Source of the DNA: Bernardetia sp. ABR2-2B
Lineage (GTDB): Bacteria > Bacteroidota > Bacteroidia > Cytophagales > Bernardetiaceae
Length of the DNA stretch: 64,000 nucleotides
Reading direction: 5' to 3'
Assembly: GCF_037126435.1 (NCBI RefSeq)
Contig: NZ_CP147020.1
Span: forward strand, 3,452,001-3,516,000
The notes under the pieces are model-generated. The model made no database searches. It was not told the origin of the DNA and worked only from the letters and a program-made list of their open reading frames with translations. The translations under genes were made by a program, and so were the position numbers. The first letter of the stretch is position 1. Each line of letters opens with the position of its first letter. Of the stretch, positions 8,138 through 29,435 are shown piece by piece.

Positions 8138-8226
8138 GTAGCTGACAGTTTCCAACTGTCAGAGATATACAGTTTTACAAAAACCTAAAATACTTTACCT
8201 TACGACAGTTGGAAACTGTCAGCTAC
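8138..8226 (+). repeat. Inverted REP pair (family A, BIME-like) before kinase
   Basis: Two palindromes face each other: GTAG-CT-GACAGTTTCCAACTGTC (8138-8160) and GACAGTTGGAAACTGTC-AGCTAC (8204-8226). Between them is an AT-rich spacer containing aaatactttacctta. GTAG (or its complement CTAC) sits at the foot of each hairpin, as in REPs processed by RAYT transposases. The right member ends 2 nt before the ATG at 8229. Confidence 0.85.
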
Positions 8227-8228
8227 TT

Positions 8229-8750
8229 ATGCTACCCACCATACAAGAATACATAGACTCGTTCAGAGAACCGAGCGATTATTTCAAAACCCTAAAGCTA
8301 CAAAACGTTCCTTCGAAGTTTGATGCAAACGAACCCTATTTTATTGCTGGTGGTTTTGCCTGTGTCTTTAAAGTAAAGCAAGAAAATCAGTTTTGGGCAT
8401 TCAAATGCTTTTTGCAGGAAGACAAACACCGAAACGAACGCCTTAAAATTCTGTCCGAATTTCTACAACAACGTACCGAAAGCTATTTTATCAAAACTCA
8501 CTACTATACCGATGAGCTTTGGGTATGTAGTCAGTTGAAAGGGAGCTTTTTTATCCGTAGGTTTTCTCCTACATTATTTCCAAGTTTGATAAATTTTTTC
8601 TCGCCTACTAAATGCTTCTTTCCCCCCTTCCATGATTCTTATAGCAGCTTGTTGAATTTTAGGATTATCAATACTTCCAATATTAGCAAACTGAGTTTTT
8701 TGATTTTCTTCATCATATTCACAAATGATAATTTGTTCACTATCTCCTAA
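8229..8750 (+). pseudogene. N-terminal fragment of a Ser/Thr protein kinase
   Basis: Residues 1-99 (to 8525) read as the N-lobe of a Hanks-type kinase of the sort found with vWA and PP2C partners: MLPTIQEYIDSFREPSDYFK, a glycine-rich loop GGFACVFKV (41-49), the ATP-anchoring Lys in FWAFKCF (Lys59), a helix with conserved acidic residues, and YTDELWV. After DELWV the reading frame passes into unrelated codons and stops at 8750, overlapping the 3' end of the opposite-strand PHP-ATPase gene. The HRD catalytic loop and DFG motif are absent, so it cannot be an active kinase. The break coincides with the edge of the inserted block. Confidence 0.7.
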
Positions 8751-11216
8751 AGCTAGAATATTAGGATTATGGGTTACAAAAATAAATTGAGTTGTTGGTT
8801 TTAAATCTTTGACTCTCTCAACTATTTTGTCTGCAACAGTAAAGTTATCAAGGTCGTCTTCTGGTTGGTCAATAATAAAAAGTTTTTTCTGCTCATTTGC
8901 TAATATGAATGCTATAAGTGCAGTTGCCTTTTGTCCGATAGAGTATTTTTGCAAGTCTTTGCCATCATAAAGAAACACATATTTGTCAGGTACTTTATAA
9001 GTTAGAAAGTCATTTATGTTTTCTTCAAAACTTTCAATAAAAGTAGGAAATAAATGACCTCCACTTAAAATGGTTTTTAACTCGCTTTCTTCTTTATATA
9101 AATCTTTATAAATGTTAATTGGATTATCGTAGTGTTCTACTATCTTTTTTATGTGTTTATCTTTTTGGAGTTGTCGTGTACATGTTTGAAGCCAGTCAGA
9201 AAAATTTTCTTTATTACCTTGAAAAGATATTTGAATTTCGAATTCGAAATCAAGTGCGTTCAACTTGTTAATCTCAGAATTAATAAAATCAAATTCTTCT
9301 TTCCATGCTGTTTGAAGAGTTTCTAAACTTTTAGTTAGTTTGTTTTCTAGAACTTCAAGTTTTTTTGTTTCTGACTTTATTTGATTTAAAAGGTCTTGTT
9401 CTTTAATTAGGTCTTTCTCATTCTGTTTATGTTTTTCTACATCAGCATCTGGTTGATTAATTTGTTTTTTTATTTCCTCAAACTCAACTTTTAGTTGGTT
9501 ATGGTGGTCTGTAAATTTTCTTTTAGCCACCAAAAAATCTTTAAGTAAAAAAATATTTTCTTGGTCTGATAACGTTTTTTCAAAAGCCTTAAAACTATCT
9601 TCTATTTTTTGTAGGCAAGGAATAATATCATTTTTAAATAATTTTTGACTTTCTTCTTGATTAGATTGATAATCTAAGTGTGTGCTAATATCAATCTGAG
9701 AAATTTCTATTTTTAACTTAGATATAATTTCATTTAAAGTACTTTTTATACTTTCTAATTTTGCTTCATCATTACTATAATCTATTTCTTTTTGTATAAA
9801 CTGCTCAAGTCCATACTCTTTGAATTTATCAATCTGTTCCTTTAAAACAGCAATTTTATTTTCAGTAATTTCTAAATTTTGCTCTTGCTTTTTTAATGAT
9901 TGTAGATTACTTATACAATCTTTTACTTCTAATCCAGCCTTTCGTATTTTTTCTTGATAAGTTATAAGTTGTTTATTTAGTATTCTTTCTTTAATTATTT
10001 TCTCATTGAAATCTTTGCCTACTTCTTCTAAATCTTTTTGACCAAAGTAAGCGATTTCTATTATGTTTTCTATTTTAAGATTTTTCTTTAAATTTCCATC
10101 TGCATCAAATATTTGAGGAGGGTTAGCTTGTGTTCTTTTGATTTTATAGCATAGATTATCTTGTTTATCAAAAAATTCAAGGGTCATTTCTCTACCTTGT
10201 CCTAAAAAACGTTTTACTATATCTTCTTTGTAGCTGCTATTATTCTGCTCAGGTAAAATGTCTAAGCCAAAACGTATAGTTTCTAGTAGAGTAGATTTTC
10301 CACCACCTCGCATTCCTATAACTGTGTTTAAGTTAGGATTTAATTTAATTTCAGTAGGGGTATCATTTGTTTCAATTATTATTTTTTTTAAAAAACAATC
10401 TTGAATATTTGGTTTTTCGTTCGCTATCCTTTCCTTGTGATGGCTAAAAGCGTATTTTACAGCATTAAATTCATACTCTCCTAATTTTATAAAGCACTTT
10501 TTATCTTGTTCGTTTTGTTTATGAGCTACGCCAACACCTTCTATACTTTTACAATCTGAGCCTTCCACAAATGCAGGGAGTACGTTTTCAAACCAATTAT
10601 TTAGAGCTTCTAATTTTCCATAATCTCTAAACTTTTGAAAACCTAAGACAATTTTTTTAAATAGACTATTTTGAGCGAATTCGGTAATACGTCCACCATT
10701 AAGTTCTTTTAAAAAGCCACTATTTTGATTCACATGAGCCATTATAATAAAATTGTCTCGTCCGTCTTTAGAATGCTCATCTAGTTTTTTTAATAAATCT
10801 TGCAAACCATATTTACATCTAGCATTTTCATTTTCTCTATTAGGTATTCCCTCAAAAGCAGCATCAAGAAATTGGTTAATGTAATCAACACTATTGTCTA
10901 TCCAATTTTCATAGTCAAATACTATTAGGCAGTGAATACCATTACTTCCATCATTTACAGAAAGTTCTACTCCTGCCATTAAATAAATTTCTTCTTTTCT
11001 AGCTTCTTTCCTTAAACTTTTAAATTCCTTTAAATCAAACTTATTATGGTTAGTAATTACTCCTACTCCAATATTTTCTTGTTGAAGTCTTTCTACATAT
11101 TCTTTTTTAAAAGAACTGGTGTTATTACTTTCATCAAATTTAAATTCCTTATCTGCTTTTGTATGTAAATGAAAGTCTGCTCTTAGCCAAGTACTACCAT
11201 GTTGGAAAATTTGCAT
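8574..11216 (-). CDS. PHP domain / SMC-like AAA ATPase (TrlF family)
   Basis: The start is chosen at the ATG ending at 11216 (880 residues, MQIFQHGSTWLRADFHLHTK); the longer frame adds an aromatic-rich tail not expected in the family. Residues 10-250 carry PHP metal-site motifs (DFHLHTKAD at 14-22, VITNHN, GVELSV, IMAHVN), predicting a phosphoesterase or nuclease. At about 296-306 is a Walker A, GMRGGGKSTLLE. Long coiled coils fill about 400-700. Walker B is FIIDQPEDDLDN (about 780) and the H-loop is FVTHNPNILALG. Such PHP-ABC ATPases occur in defence islands; the mode of action is inference. It lies opposite to its neighbours and splits an operon, leaving kinase and vWA fragments at its edges. 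Its base composition is very AT-rich. Confidence 0.8.
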   Translation of the reverse strand: MQIFQHGSTWLRADFHLHTKADKEFKFDESNNTSSFKKEYVERLQQENIGVGVITNHNKFDLKEFKSLRKEARKEEIYLMAGVELSVNDGSNGIHCLIVFDYENWIDNSVDYINQFLDAAFEGIPNRENENARCKYGLQDLLKKLDEHSKDGRDNFIIMAHVNQNSGFLKELNGGRITEFAQNSLFKKIVLGFQKFRDYGKLEALNNWFENVLPAFVEGSDCKSIEGVGVAHKQNEQDKKCFIKLGEYEFNAVKYAFSHHKERIANEKPNIQDCFLKKIIIETNDTPTEIKLNPNLNTVIGMRGGGKSTLLETIRFGLDILPEQNNSSYKEDIVKRFLGQGREMTLEFFDKQDNLCYKIKRTQANPPQIFDADGNLKKNLKIENIIEIAYFGQKDLEEVGKDFNEKIIKERILNKQLITYQEKIRKAGLEVKDCISNLQSLKKQEQNLEITENKIAVLKEQIDKFKEYGLEQFIQKEIDYSNDEAKLESIKSTLNEIISKLKIEISQIDISTHLDYQSNQEESQKLFKNDIIPCLQKIEDSFKAFEKTLSDQENIFLLKDFLVAKRKFTDHHNQLKVEFEEIKKQINQPDADVEKHKQNEKDLIKEQDLLNQIKSETKKLEVLENKLTKSLETLQTAWKEEFDFINSEINKLNALDFEFEIQISFQGNKENFSDWLQTCTRQLQKDKHIKKIVEHYDNPINIYKDLYKEESELKTILSGGHLFPTFIESFEENINDFLTYKVPDKYVFLYDGKDLQKYSIGQKATALIAFILANEQKKLFIIDQPEDDLDNFTVADKIVERVKDLKPTTQFIFVTHNPNILALGDSEQIIICEYDEENQKTQFANIGSIDNPKIQQAAIRIMEGGKEAFSRREKIYQTWK

Positions 11217-11342
11217 ATATTTAGGGTTTAAAGGTTTTGAGTTATGAATATAGTAATAAAAAAACAAAATTTTAATAAGTAATAAATAAATAGTAAAAAA
11301 ACAGAAGTTAATTTTTATTATTCTTGTTGTTGGCAGGGCGAA

Positions 11343-11963
11343 TTGGAAGGCAAAACGTGGGTTTCGGTAAGCGAGTTAGCAGCTACACCACTCGGCAGCG
11401 AAGAAGTTACAGAAACAAAATTGGTTCGTGGTACTTTCAAAACACAAACCAAAGAAGTAAAATATTGGCTTTCGTCTGTTGCTTCTTCGCTTACGCCTAT
11501 GGGAGCAGCACTAGAACACGCTTCCCTTTTACTCAAGGATTGGATAGAAGCGCACCCAAGCAGTTATCCTCCTACGGTTTTTAATTTTACCGATGACGCA
11601 CAAACCGATTGTTCGGACGATGAGCTACTAGAAAAAGCAAGGTTTCTCAAAAATCTCCATACCGAAGATGGCAATGTTTTGCTTTTCAACTGTAATATTT
11701 CCACTTCCAAGCAAGAACCGATATTTTTTCCTCTTTCTCGTACCGAGTTACCTCAAAACGACAAATATGCACACTTGATGTATAATTTATCGTCGGATAT
11801 GCCAGAAAAGTATGCTGCTGATGTAGCTGTTTTACGCAAAACAGATATTCCGACCGATTCAGTTTTTTCGGCGATGGTCTATCAAGCCGATGATGCTGCA
11901 CTAGTCAGAATGTTGGATATTGGTTCTCGTTCGCAGCGTACTATGATAGGTAGAGATAAGTAG
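11343..11963 (+). pseudogene. C-terminal fragment of a vWA-domain protein
   Basis: The open frame has no ATG (it enters at a TTG at 11343 and the frame extends a little upstream). It encodes the later part of a vWA fold: TWVSVSELAATPLGSEEV, then SLTPMGAALEHASLLLKDWI (the MIDAS threonine-loop region) and PTVFNFTDDAQTDCSDDELL (third MIDAS segment). The first MIDAS motif D-x-S-x-S, normally 50-60 residues earlier, is missing; the sequence upstream belongs to the inserted PHP-ATPase block. Proteins of this type (TerY-like) work with a kinase and a PP2C phosphatase. The remains lie in the expected place between kinase and PP2C. It is probably non-functional. Confidence 0.65.
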
Positions 11964-11966
11964 CCT

Positions 11967-12128
11967 GTAGGCGACAGTTTCCAACTGTCGCAAAAATATA
12001 GTATTTTGTATTCTTTCAAACTTTACCTTTCTGACAGTATGTAGGCGACAGTTTCCAACTGTCGTAAAAATATAGTATTTTGTATTCTTTTAAAACTTAC
12101 CCTCTGACAGTTGGAAACTGTCAGCTAC
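11967..12128 (+). repeat. Family A REP cluster before the RAYT gene
   Basis: Three palindromes: GTAG-GC-GACAGTTTCCAACTGTC at 11967-11989, the same again at 12041-12063, and the inverted form ending in AGCTAC at 12103-12128. A truncated CTGACAG at 12031 precedes the second copy. The spacer caaaaatatagtattttg follows both direct copies, so the left unit has been tandemly duplicated (period 74 nt). The last copy ends 3 nt before the RAYT ATG. Confidence 0.85.
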
Positions 12129-12131
12129 ATT

Positions 12132-12767
12132 ATGAATGAATTTAAAAAGGATTTTTATAGAGCTAATCTTCCTCACTTACAACCCTTAGGAGGAACTTTT
12201 TTTGTAACCTATAATCTTTCTGGTTCTGTTCCTATGCACGTTATAGAAAAGTGGGAAGAAGAATATAAGATAGACAAGAAGAAGATAAAGGAAAACAAAG
12301 ATGCAAAGTGGAATGATTTAGATAATCTGAATAAACGTTACTTTTTGAAGAAAGATAAATTTTTAGACGAAACTAAAAACGGTGACTTTTATTTACAACA
12401 AGATGAGATTGCAAAAATAGTTACTGGTTCGCTTCATTTTTGGGATACAAAAAAATTAGACCTTTTAGCATATTGTGTAATGCCAAACCATGTACATGTA
12501 GTTTTTCGTTTGTTTGATAATGAAGAAATAGAACAAGATGTATATTTGACTCAAATTATGCACTCTATAAAACGTTTTTCAGCAGCAGAATGTAATAAAA
12601 AGCTGGGATTAAGAGGCGAATTTTGGCAGCACGAAAGTTATGACAGATTGGTTAGAAATGAAACCGAACTAAAAAATATAATTGCTTATATTTTGGATAA
12701 TCCTGTAAAAGCAAATTTGTGTAAAGAACAAAAAGATTGGAAATGGTCGTATGAAAAAAGTGGCTGA
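12132..12767 (+). CDS. REP-associated tyrosine transposase (RAYT, IS200-like Y1)
   Basis: The start is the ATG at 12132 (211 residues, MNEFKKDFYRANLPHLQP). A longer in-frame TTG start would lie inside the REP. Diagnostic features are the LGGTFFVTYNL opening, the HUH motif in MPNHVHVVFRL (about residue 120), IKRFSAAECNK, GEFWQHESYDRLVRNETEL, and the catalytic-Tyr helix NIIAYILDNPVKANL, followed by WKWSY. These are the marks of RAYT proteins, single-copy Y1 HUH endonucleases that act on REP palindromes with a GTAG-like foot. Family A REPs with exactly that foot flank it. Its stop codon (12765-12767) lies within the downstream REP, suggesting gene and repeats form one REPtron unit. Confidence 0.88.
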   Translation: MNEFKKDFYRANLPHLQPLGGTFFVTYNLSGSVPMHVIEKWEEEYKIDKKKIKENKDAKWNDLDNLNKRYFLKKDKFLDETKNGDFYLQQDEIAKIVTGSLHFWDTKKLDLLAYCVMPNHVHVVFRLFDNEEIEQDVYLTQIMHSIKRFSAAECNKKLGLRGEFWQHESYDRLVRNETELKNIIAYILDNPVKANLCKEQKDWKWSYEKSG

Positions 12768-12876
12768 CAGTTTAACTTTGTTGAGAGCTAAAGCCGTTCC
12801 AACTGTTAGAGATATAAACGTCAGAATTACAAATTAAAAATAACGTACTTTACGACAGTTGGAAACTGTCGGCTAC
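12760..12876 (+). repeat. Family A REP pair after RAYT, left member interrupted
   Basis: The left member starts GTGG-CT-GACAGTTT, is interrupted by about 24 nt (aactttgttgagagctaaag and a few more), then resumes TCCAACTGT. The interruption resembles family D repeats, which share GCTAAAGCCGT. The right member GACAGTTGGAAACTGTC-GGCTAC (12854-12876) ends 2 nt before the PP2C ATG at 12879. The pair overlaps the RAYT stop codon. Confidence 0.75.
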
Positions 12877-12878
12877 TT

Positions 12879-13727
12879 ATGATACGCTCTCAAACCTGTG
12901 CTAAATACATTCACGAAGAAGACCAAAAAGAAGCCAATCGTCAAAACGAAGATGCTTTTTGTATTTATAATTCTGATTCAAAAAGCGATAAAAATCTAAA
13001 AATAGCTCTTTCAGATGGTGCTGGTGGAATGGGTTTGTTTGCTGCCGATTGGTCAAAACAGTTGGTAGATAATTTACCAAATGAGCCTTTTGAAAATGTA
13101 GAAAGCGTATCAAATTGGTTAGGCACTTTTTGGGAACAATTTTACGATAGATACAGTCAGAAAGCTGCAAAATTAGGAAGTGATTATCAAAATAAGTTTT
13201 TCGAACAGGGAAGCGCAGCTACATTAGTTGGTTTGTGGGAAAAAGAAACTGTTTTTGAATGGGTAACATATGGTGATAGTTGTATTAGTGTTTTTTCAAA
13301 AAGTAGTATTGATAATACGTTTCAAATGTTTCCTTATTCTTTACCTTCACAATTTTCTACTTATCCTCATTTGATAAATGTTCAAGAAGAATGTCAGCAG
13401 GAAGGTTTTTTGAAGGGAAGTTTTGAGAAAGAAAATGTAGATTTTATTCTGCTTACTAGCGATGCACTTTCTTTGTATATTTTATTGAGAGTTTGGCAAA
13501 CAGAAAAGAAAGAAGAATTTAAAAAACTGACTTTAGAAAACAGCAAAATAGGACATCTAGCAAATAAGATTAACGAGCTTGAAGAAGTTATTTCTGCAAA
13601 TGATTTTTTAGAGAACTTGTGGAAAATAACAGAATCAAAAGAAAGTTTTGAAAAATGGTGTTATGAAAAGCACAAAAGTGGAGTTTTAGAAAATGATGAT
13701 TATACATGTGTGATTGTAAAACTGTAA
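12879..13727 (+). CDS. PP2C-family protein phosphatase
   Basis: A 282-residue protein with PP2C motifs in order: RQNEDAFCIY (metal Asp near residue 25), LSDGAGGMG (about 46-54), GSAATLVGLW, WVTYGDSCISVF, LLTSDALSLYIL and the C-terminal DDYTCVIVKL. All metal-binding aspartates expected for Mn/Mg-dependent Ser/Thr phosphatases are visible. In TerY-P type operons this enzyme reverses phosphorylation by the partner kinase. Here the kinase and vWA partners upstream are broken, while this gene and the following PLD gene look intact. The start codon directly follows a REP hairpin, and no Shine-Dalgarno sequence is seen. Confidence 0.85.
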   Translation: MIRSQTCAKYIHEEDQKEANRQNEDAFCIYNSDSKSDKNLKIALSDGAGGMGLFAADWSKQLVDNLPNEPFENVESVSNWLGTFWEQFYDRYSQKAAKLGSDYQNKFFEQGSAATLVGLWEKETVFEWVTYGDSCISVFSKSSIDNTFQMFPYSLPSQFSTYPHLINVQEECQQEGFLKGSFEKENVDFILLTSDALSLYILLRVWQTEKKEEFKKLTLENSKIGHLANKINELEEVISANDFLENLWKITESKESFEKWCYEKHKSGVLENDDYTCVIVKL

Positions 13728-13816
13728 CCTACAGCTTCCAACTGTCAGAGGTGTAAATTTTAGAACTACAAAATTAAAAATACTTTACTTTACGACAGTT
13801 GAAAACTGTCGCCTAC
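13728..13816 (+). repeat. Family A REP pair before the PLD gene
   Basis: A degenerate left member, cctacagcttccaactgtca (13728-13747), and a right member GACAGTTGAAAACTGTC-GCCTAC (13794-13816) enclose a spacer with aaaatactttactttacg like that of the pair at 8138-8226. The right member ends 2 nt before the ATG at 13819. Confidence 0.75.
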
Positions 13817-13818
13817 TT

Positions 13819-14985
13819 ATGAAAACACTATTTGAAAATATTCGTCCTGTTATTTGTCAAGAACTAGAAAAAGCAACTTCTTCTATTTATGTAGCTGTGG
13901 CGTGGTTTACTGACCCTATTTTATTTAGAATTTTGGAACAAAAACTAAAAGAAAACGTACAAATCCGTATTTTTTTGGTGGACGATGAAATAAATTTTGG
14001 AAGTTATGGTCTTGATTTTTCAAAACTAGAAAGGACAAGTAATGGAACTAACGAAGCTAAAATTCATAAAATAGCCGAAACATTGATGCACCATAAATTC
14101 TGCATTATTGATAAAAAAACAGTCTTGACAGGTTCGTATAATTGGACAAAAAAAGCAGCTACAAAAAATAGAGAAAATTTAGTCATTACAGAAGAATTGG
14201 AATATGTAAAACCGTATTTAGAAGAGTTTGAGTTTCTATCTCAAAAATATGCAGGAATTACAAATAAAAATGAGCTAGGAGCAAATCTAAAAATCGTTTC
14301 TCTACAACAAGAAATCAAATTTTTGGAGGAAATAATCAGTCAGTTAGAAACCGAAAAACAATCTATCGAACAAAAGATAAATCATTTTATTCATCTGTTG
14401 CATCTGCGTTTAGGTCATTTATTCAAAAAATTAATAGAACTAAAAGAAAAAGTAGCTGAAGAAATTGCCGTTAAAACAGAAAAACAAGAAGATTATCAAA
14501 ACTGGCAACAAGTAAAATCTGACAAAGAACAATTTGAATCTACCTTTGAAAGCTACAAACAAAAAATGGTTTCTAATCAAAAGAAAGAAAAAGTAGCTTC
14601 TCTCAAAAAATTATATCACGAAATCGTAAAACGCTGCCACCCAGACAAAGTACAACCAAAACACGAAAAAGCAGCCACCGAGCTTTTCAAAAAAGCACAA
14701 CGAGCCTTTGAAGAAGGAAATAAAGAAGTTTTGAATGATATTTTGGAAAAACTAGAAAAAGGAATTGCCTTTGATTACAATATTGAATCTATAAACGATA
14801 TTGAATTTTTAGAGCAACTGCTTCTAAAGTTACAGAAAAAAGAAGCTGAACTTTTAGAGGAATTAGAAAATCTACAAAGACAACAAGAATGGAAAATCAT
14901 TACTACCTATGATGATGTAGAAGTTTATTTTTCAGAACAAGAAATTTTATTGAGTAAGGAGCTTAAAAACATGAGTTATGAATAA
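13819..14985 (+). CDS. Phospholipase-D-like nuclease fused to a J-domain-like region
   Basis: A 388-residue protein. Residues 1-130 are a PLD fold: SIYVAVAWFTDPILFRIL, then the HKD motif MHHKFCIIDKKTVLTGSYNW (about 90-109). A single HKD suggests a dimeric nuclease of the Nuc type rather than a lipase. Residues about 160-255 are a long coiled coil. Residues about 256-310 (LKKLYHEIVKRCHPDKVQPK, then LFKKAQRAFEEGN) contain the HPD tripeptide of DnaJ J-domains, so an Hsp70 contact is possible. The C-terminus is again coiled coil. It is the last gene of the kinase-vWA-PP2C block. A nuclease effector controlled by phosphorylation is inference. Confidence 0.8.
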   Translation: MKTLFENIRPVICQELEKATSSIYVAVAWFTDPILFRILEQKLKENVQIRIFLVDDEINFGSYGLDFSKLERTSNGTNEAKIHKIAETLMHHKFCIIDKKTVLTGSYNWTKKAATKNRENLVITEELEYVKPYLEEFEFLSQKYAGITNKNELGANLKIVSLQQEIKFLEEIISQLETEKQSIEQKINHFIHLLHLRLGHLFKKLIELKEKVAEEIAVKTEKQEDYQNWQQVKSDKEQFESTFESYKQKMVSNQKKEKVASLKKLYHEIVKRCHPDKVQPKHEKAATELFKKAQRAFEEGNKEVLNDILEKLEKGIAFDYNIESINDIEFLEQLLLKLQKKEAELLEELENLQRQQEWKIITTYDDVEVYFSEQEILLSKELKNMSYE

Positions 14986-21816: not shown

Positions 21817-21859
21817 AGTAGAAGATAGCTTCCAAACTATCTAAAAAATATAAAATACA

Positions 21860-29421: not shown

Positions 29422-29435
29422 TAATTTTTTACTTT

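What the first reader, a model, noticed from the sequence alone, without database searches (positions are those of the whole stretch)
8138..13818. REP pairs abutting four start codons of one operon
Before the kinase (8229), RAYT (12132), PP2C (12879) and PLD (13819) ATGs there is the same unit: a hairpin with GACAGTTTCCAACTGTC, a spacer containing a/tactttac, the inverted hairpin ending GCTAC or CCTAC, then 2-3 nt and ATG. Spacers are also related, so whole BIME-like units were copied. A hairpin this close to ATG could affect translation or mRNA processing. Finding them at every gene junction in one operon and not elsewhere in the window is striking.
Basis: seen in the sequence. Interest (0 to 1): 0.76.

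Follow-up and report, generated by a model that had tools for sequence, protein, structure and literature searches.

The report
RAYT-linked REP pairs filling operon gaps
Short mobile hairpin pairs, of the kind copied by a transposase gene found in the same operon, fill the tiny gaps between its genes; in related species they favour the ends of genes rather than the starts, so their closeness to start codons here is mainly a result of very short gaps.

Summary
The units are real: GTAG-headed REP pairs (REPIN/BIME type) at 8138-8226, 11967-12128, 12762-12876 and 13725-13816, each ending 2-3 nt before an ATG, around an intact RAYT gene (12132-12767). Close full-length copies (78-84%) were found only in this operon (capped candidate list). 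A sister species has another hairpin type at the three shared junctions, so REPs here changed together. The start-codon reading fails: over 102 sites in six species of the genus, outer REP edges of pairs outside the two operons touch stops (12 of 25 within 4 nt, 4.15 expected), often with GTAG supplying the TAG, but do not prefer starts (1 of 31, 3.44 expected). In the operons 5 of 7 pairs touch a start and 5.15 are expected from gap size. The gaps are a few bases wide, so a pair there touches both genes. The first gene is a remnant: a TrlF-type gene replaced the kinase core and VWA 5' part. Stop-proximal REPs, REP-supplied TAG stops, REP-flanked RAYTs and clustering near RAYTs are published. 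This is a new member of a known kind; effects on translation are untested.

The parts
8138..8226 (.). REP pair (REPIN/BIME unit) K: GTAG-headed REP, 43-nt spacer, inverted REP; ends 2 nt before the kinase-remnant ATG (8229), 10 nt after the SNF2 stop
   Evidence: full-unit homology to the other units
8229..8537 (+). 5' remnant of the TerY-P type kinase gene (intact 637-aa homologue in the sister genome, PADLOC STK_OB)
   Evidence: blastn to L057; PADLOC on the sister protein
8574..11267 (-). TrlF-family AAA ATPase gene that replaced the kinase core and the VWA 5' part; outside the REP system
   Evidence: NCBIfam NF045780 453 bits (cut-off 350); boundaries of homology
11343..11963 (+). 3' part of the TerY (VWA) gene; its stop TAG lies 3 nt before the first REP head
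   Evidence: PADLOC TerY 4.9e-33; sequence
11967..12037 (.). first unit before RAYT: REP plus spacer, 94% identical over 62 nt to the next unit (tandem, period 74)
12041..12128 (.). REP pair R before RAYT; its spacer, reverse-complemented, is related to those of K and D; CTAC 3 nt before the RAYT ATG
12132..12767 (+). RAYT (TnpA-REP, Y1 transposase) with NHVH, WQ and YILDNP motifs
   Evidence: Pfam Y1_Tnp; NCBIfam REP_Tyr_transpos 81.2 bits over cut-off 80; PDB 4er8 TnpArep E 5e-5
12762..12876 (.). REP pair P; the RAYT stop TGA lies inside its left REP, left arm carries an extra stretch; CTAC 2 nt before the PP2C ATG
12879..13727 (+). PP2C phosphatase gene of the TerY-P type module
   Evidence: PADLOC PP2C 2.6e-14; no Pfam family at 0.001
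13725..13816 (.). REP pair D; left head reads GTAA, so that the PP2C stop TAA lies in it; left half keeps the AGCTT form seen in the sister species; CTAC 2 nt before the PLD ATG
13819..14985 (+). PLD-DnaJ gene, last gene of the operon
   Evidence: Pfam PLDc_2; DnaJ match below its cut-off
21818..21841 (+). related single REP elsewhere in the window, 1 nt after a stop codon

Best explanation
The units are REP pairs of the REPIN/BIME kind, non-autonomous mobile repeats served by the RAYT encoded among them (a REPtron). RAYT with its flanking REPs entered between the VWA and PP2C genes of a TerY-P type operon in an ancestor of two species of this genus (inferred from their shared order and its absence in two other genera). 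Further units arose at nearby gaps, and in this lineage one unit sequence then spread to the REP-bearing junctions of the operon by local copying or conversion, replacing older units. Insertions persist where they do no damage. The native gaps here are only a few bases, so a surviving unit fills the gap and touches the stop on one side and the ATG on the other. The rule in the genus is point contact with the stop codon: the GTAG head coincides with, or lies a few bases beyond, the stop. Shown here: anatomy, relatedness of the units, a different hairpin type in the sister, stop preference, no detectable start preference, gap explanation. Inferred: that this RAYT did the copying, and that local copying rather than ordinary recombination did the replacement.
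For: RAYT assignment. GTAG head, hairpin and inverted pairing, with compensatory stem changes: 1187 of 1295 stem pairs Watson-Crick in 165 REPs. Clustering: 7 of 11 exact palindromes of a 5.38-Mb genome lie in this 6 kb. Close full-length unit copies (78-84%) only here among the candidates scored. The sister species (L057) has REPs at the same three junctions but of another hairpin type: operon REPs are 6 short-type and 0 long-type in this genome, 0 and 12 in the sister, and spacers match within this operon but not at the same junction across species. Two relatives of other genera have VWA and PP2C 1 and 23 nt apart with no RAYT. Stop contacts of pairs outside the two operons 12 of 25 (4.15 expected, simulated P 3.5e-5), start contacts 1 of 31 (3.44 expected); start contacts in the operons 5 of 7 (5.15 expected). 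At three stop-contact sites, 9 of 11 aligned orthologues without this REP pair end at the same codon and 2 end one codon later. Published agreement: GTAG REPs often supply a TAG stop and lie near 3' ends, at varying distance from downstream ORFs (PMC3733652, passages); REPs concentrated near some rayt genes (PMC2817692, passages).
Against: No transposition was observed. The replacement could be plain gene conversion without RAYT. RAYT and the REPs may be co-inherited passengers. The motif YILDNP matches no row exactly in the subclass table seen in PMC6006769. The unit is not wholly private: a REP pair elsewhere in this genome (L001) has a short spacer related to that of K (0 of 1000 shuffles), L013 matches half of the D unit (85%), and G004 has a weak full-length match (71%). 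The stop test uses home-made gene models. In a direct comparison of 23 one-directional pairs outside the operons, the stop side is nearer in 14 and the start side in 9 (P 0.40), so the stop preference is a point contact and not a general shift.
Confidence: 0.8

Rival explanations
1. The units are selected as mRNA elements at start codons: a hairpin next to each ATG throttles initiation, or couples it to termination of the upstream gene, and so sets the stoichiometry of the operon.
For: Right-arm hairpins of -9.4 to -10.7 kcal/mol end 7-9 nt before four of four ATGs; the whole K, R and P pairs fold at -45.9, -40.4 and -36.1 kcal/mol, better than all 200 shuffles each. Predicted unpaired fraction around the four starts is 0.32, 0.39, 0.51 and 0.41 against 0.55 (sd 0.12) for 31 control starts; keeping the left arm unpaired raises all four values, by 0.01 to 0.23 (for the ATG itself three rise and PP2C falls).
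Against: No start preference found in the genus; operon start contacts match chance given the gaps. The long stem is interrupted in the P unit and weak in the D unit (z -1.82; 11 of 200 shuffles fold as well). Distances to the ATG are 8, 2 and 9 nt in the sister. Wobble pairs do not follow the transcribed strand: G-T to A-C is 27:14 where the REP strand is the transcript and 11:5 where it is the template, whereas selection on RNA predicts a reversal. Three of the four starts lie within the control range.
Confidence: 0.12
2. The units act on the upstream gene: a hairpin directly after the stop codon stalls ribosomes and lowers output, as reported for E. coli REPs closer than 16 nt to a stop.
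For: Left hairpins begin 9 nt after the VWA stop, overlap the RAYT stop, and begin 2 nt after the PP2C stop. REP edges touch stops across the genus. The E. coli rule is described in passages of PMC12306157, which cites Liang 2015 (that paper itself not seen).
Against: No expression data. Two of the three left hairpins are interrupted or degenerate (P and D). Stop contact is equally expected if GTAG simply coincides with TAG stops and insertions elsewhere are purged.
Confidence: 0.2
3. Concerted evolution by ordinary recombination between inverted or direct repeats of the operon, without RAYT.
For: Five related units within 6 kb, two of them in tandem at 94% identity, and both orientations present; a half-and-half arm in the D unit (AGCTT left half, AACTG right half).
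Against: The kinase unit exists only in this species and sits at a junction where the sister has another repeat family, which asks for a new insertion or a carried-in unit; RAYT is intact and clustered with the REPs.
Confidence: 0.25

Closest known systems
REPtron: RAYT/TnpA-REP gene flanked by inverted GTAG REPs (Nunvar 2010 PMC2817692, passages; PMC8266576, passages)
   Same: intact RAYT, inverted GTAG-type REPs on both sides within a few nt of its start and stop, REP type differing between species, REPs concentrated near the gene
   Different: sits inside a TerY-P type operon; further units fill neighbouring gene junctions; RAYT motif between published subclasses
REPIN / BIME pairs (PMC3116915, search listing only; PMC3733652, abstract and passages)
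   Same: two inverted REPs around a short spacer, extragenic, found as pairs, singles and tandem arrays
   Different: low copy number, and close full-length copies of one unit found only in a single operon
GTAG REPs supplying stop codons (PMC3733652, passages)
   Same: head GTAG gives TAG stop; near 3' ends of upstream ORFs, at varying distance from downstream ORFs
   Different: here quantified for one genus with a gap-corrected null and orthologous sites that lack the REP pair
Stop-proximal REPs that reduce translation in E. coli (Liang 2015, seen only as cited in PMC12306157)
   Same: hairpin within 15 nt after a stop at three junctions
   Different: no expression evidence here

Membership tests
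REP (GTAG type) | GTAG or GTGG head 0-2 nt before a hairpin with a basal stem of 7 or more pairs and a short loop (rule as given in PMC6006769, passages) | tested here: met
   GTAG + 2 nt + 7-bp stem, 3-nt loop; 1187 of 1295 stem pairs Watson-Crick in 165 copies. The same rule's demand for three G or C in the first four stem bases is not met (GACA has two).
REP (GTAG type) | repeated and mainly extragenic | tested here: met
   17 places in the own genome for each of two patterns; 4 of 102 unique sites inside genes
REPIN/BIME | two REPs in inverted orientation with a spacer | tested here: met
   at four junctions, two of them with an interrupted or degenerate left arm
RAYT | Y1 HUH transposase domain with HUH and Tyr motifs, REP-associated | tested here: met
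   (81.2 bits, cut-off 80); NHVH and YILDNP read from the sequence
RAYT | gene flanked by two inverted REPs | tested here: met
   12106-12128 before it and the interrupted REP from 12762 after it; sister species likewise
RAYT | binds and cleaves its REPs | not testable with these tools
   needs protein
RAYT | fits a published subclass (2.4 YIxNNP or 2.7 YI[LR][NQ]NP) | tested here: inconclusive
   YILDNP fits neither exactly (table seen in PMC6006769 passages)
TerY-P type module (PADLOC) | kinase STK_OB, VWA TerY and PP2C together | tested here: inconclusive
   sister genome: kinase STK_OB and TerY, PP2C 83% identical to the window's; in the window kinase and TerY are truncated. That these three names form one system is recalled.

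The most novel reading that the evidence does not exclude
A resident RAYT keeps rewriting the REP pairs of its own operon, so that each species carries its own hairpin type at the REP-bearing junctions. These pairs serve as standard intergenic linkers that give each gene its stop and its leader, coupling termination of one gene to initiation of the next.
Probability: 0.12. Interest if true: 0.65.

Novelty: new member of a known kind. Interest (0 to 1): 0.33.

Why it matters
It gives a clean natural example of REP pairs turning over together around their transposase, with a sister species carrying another hairpin type at the same three junctions. That makes local RAYT-driven copying directly testable. 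It also shows why position next to ATGs in compact operons must be corrected for gap length before a regulatory role is claimed.

Tried and rejected
Start-codon preference: tested with gap-corrected placement and not found. In the first version my gene caller missed the kinase-remnant start and the second REP of the sister PP2C junction; both were corrected by hand (start contacts 4 of 36 to 6 of 38, expected 7.21 to 8.60; stop contacts 17 of 32 to 18 of 32, expected 7.95 to 9.30). My caller takes the first in-frame ATG, which can place starts too early and so hide start contacts; three start-facing edges overlap such starts by 26-35 nt and are not counted as contacts. Stops are not affected by this.

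Selection on RNA pairing: tested by wobble direction against transcription; no strand dependence (odds ratio 0.88, P 1.0). Copies share ancestry, so this is weak.

REP supplies the stop by truncating the upstream gene: not supported at three sites, where 9 of 11 orthologues aligned without this REP pair end at the same codon and 2 (L228, L230) one codon later. Only orthologues with both flanks in one stretch were aligned; split matches in G000, G002 and G003 were left out. Two of the 11 (L207, L218) may hold a decayed REP; L228 has a GTAG-headed hairpin of another kind at its stop; L208 ends in GAGTAG without the REP pair.

Spacer comparison in forward orientation alone missed that the RAYT unit is inverted; found by the unit search and repeated in both orientations. 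The P-R spacer pair stayed below my threshold (z 2.5).

A GTAG-hairpin scan of eight other RAYT loci printed none; reading the flanks of six of them shows other hairpin families there, some touching the RAYT start or stop (L060, L062, L063, L065). The scan was too strict. A REP regex printed nothing because it allowed the wrong length; searches replaced it.

Limits: site statistics use REPs; the 39 short-type hits in G004 and G005 were not followed up as such. Four fetched loci (L101, L105, L155, L184) gave no REP under my hairpin filter and dropped out, and a few single hits (such as the second REP of L130) were lost to it as well. 16 sites were merged as orthologous by flank similarity (118 to 102), a few perhaps by chance. 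In one search at most 40 candidates per genome were scored (51 in G000, 83 in G005). One literature search returned no paper.

Full report
What is there. Four gaps around 8.1-13.8 kb hold pairs of inverted palindromes with GTAG-type heads. The first pair has 23-nt arms that are fully complementary. The RAYT gap holds a third REP, and its two left units are a 74-nt tandem, 94% alike over 62 nt. The right-hand CTAC lies 2, 3, 2 and 2 nt before the ATGs of the kinase remnant, RAYT, PP2C and PLD genes. On the left side, the RAYT stop TGA lies within the REP; the PP2C stop TAA is part of the changed head; the VWA stop TAG lies 3 nt before the head; the SNF2 stop lies 10 nt before it.

The genes. 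The operon is a kinase-TerY-PP2C module with a PLD-DnaJ gene. A sister genome (G005) has the intact order kinase-VWA-RAYT-PP2C-PLD in another neighbourhood; one search finds the same region in a contig of equal length (19,687 bases) labelled Flexibacter sp. CG_4_10_14_3_um_filter_32_15, a metagenome-assembled genome. In the window the homology to it breaks at 8537 and resumes at 11328: a TrlF-family gene on the minus strand has replaced the kinase core and the VWA 5' part. In two other genera of the family VWA and PP2C lie 23 and 1 nt apart, by first ATG, with no RAYT between them.

The RAYT. It reaches NCBIfam's cut-off for REP-associated tyrosine transposases narrowly (81.2 against 80) and matches a TnpA-REP in the PDB (4er8, E 5e-5). 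It has NHVH, WQ and YILDNP motifs. Of six other RAYT loci whose flanks I read, four have a hairpin touching or close to the RAYT start or stop, of other families.

Genome and genus. Of 11 exact palindromes in the own genome 7 lie in this operon; of 17 headed REPs with up to 3 mismatches, also 7. A related long-type REP (up to 2 mismatches) occurs 17 times in the own genome, none in the operon, and 6 to 67 times in five of six sister species, with none in G003. The short type (up to 1 mismatch) occurs 11 times in the own genome, 6 of them in the operon, and 30 times in G005, none in its operon; the G005 operon instead holds 12 long-type REPs. So the REPs of this operon are of one type in each species. 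The exception is the D unit, whose left arm joins a long-type left half (AGCTT) to a short-type right half, which points to partial replacement.

Unit copying. A search with the whole D unit in 8 genomes (at most 40 candidates scored per genome) gave matches over most of the unit at the P unit (84%), the K unit (79%) and, inverted, the R units (82% and 78%) of this operon. The one other match across the whole unit was weak (G004, 71%); L013 of the own genome matches half of it (85%); the remaining listed matches cover smaller parts. Of the spacer pairs, K-P, K-D, P-D, K-R and R-D (R inverted) are related (0 or 1 of 1000 shuffles reach the score); P-R is not above threshold. The 23-nt spacer of L001, elsewhere in this genome, is also related to K (0 of 1000). 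Spacers at the same junctions of the two species are not above threshold.

Starts or stops. From the REP sites, contexts were read for 118 sites in six species, 102 after merging orthologous ones, 4 of them inside genes. After correction, 38 of 71 stop-facing outer edges lie within 4 nt of the stop or overlap it, 14 of them with the stop being the TAG of the head; 9 of 64 start-facing edges lie within 4 nt of a start. With pairs placed uniformly in their gaps, stop contacts outside the two operons are 12 of 25 (4.15 expected, P 3.5e-5) and start contacts 1 of 31 (3.44 expected). In the two operons start contacts are 5 of 7 (5.15 expected) and stop contacts 6 of 7 (5.15 expected). The start contacts are therefore what gap size predicts. 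In 23 one-directional pairs outside the operons the stop side is nearer in 14 and the start side in 9, which is not significant. At three stop-contact sites, 9 of 11 aligned orthologues without this REP pair end at the same codon and 2 one codon later, so the unit was mostly added at an existing stop.

Possible effects. Right-arm hairpins alone fold at -9.4 to -10.7 kcal/mol; whole pairs fold at -45.9 (K), -40.4 (R), -36.1 (P, z -3.19) and -18.8 (D, z -1.82). The four start regions are on the structured side of 31 control starts, but only the kinase remnant lies below all of them. Stem wobble pairs do not depend on the transcribed strand. In E. coli, REPs closer than 16 nt to a stop lower translation (PMC12306157 passages, citing Liang 2015); the VWA, RAYT and PP2C genes meet that distance here. 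Nothing here tests it.

What is known. [quoted passage not shown] PMC2817692 (passages) describes REP-flanked RAYTs and REPs concentrated near some rayt genes; PMC8266576 (passages) repeats this for Marinomonas. PMC6006769 (passages) reports RAYTs with canonical REPs of subclass 2.4 in Bacteroidetes. My searches used RAYT, REP and stop-codon terms only and listed no paper on this operon; I did not search for the operon itself. The finding is a new member of a known kind, with a clear case of REPs differing together at all three shared junctions.

Noticed in passing
window 8574-11267: A minus-strand TrlF-family AAA ATPase gene replaces the kinase core and the 5' part of the TerY gene, leaving remnants on both sides.
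   Followed up: partly
L057 (G005:C308), upstream of the kinase: The sister species has a different inverted hairpin pair (GGTCGCTCGTGGGGACACGAGC) upstream of the same gene; with up to 3 mismatches this family has 36 matches in the own genome and 55 in G005, including two in the window near 29435 and 29635.
   Followed up: partly
window 12771-12798 and L065:3174-3201: The extra stretch in the left REP of the PP2C unit (TTTAACTTYGTTGAGARCTAAAGCCGTT) also sits in a hairpin next to another RAYT of the sister species, so it may belong to a longer REP-like element and not be random sequence.
   Followed up: partly
L057, between the VWA and RAYT genes: Six head-to-tail REPs with a 28-nt period form a tandem array in the sister species.
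   Followed up: no
L110 near 2100-2145 and many places in six genomes: Another abundant short repeat family appears in the search with L110; the alignments show further small hairpins at the same junctions in other species.
   Followed up: no
L124, L164, L178, L186: A REP pair 3 nt before the same start codon is kept in four species with different stem letters.
   Followed up: no
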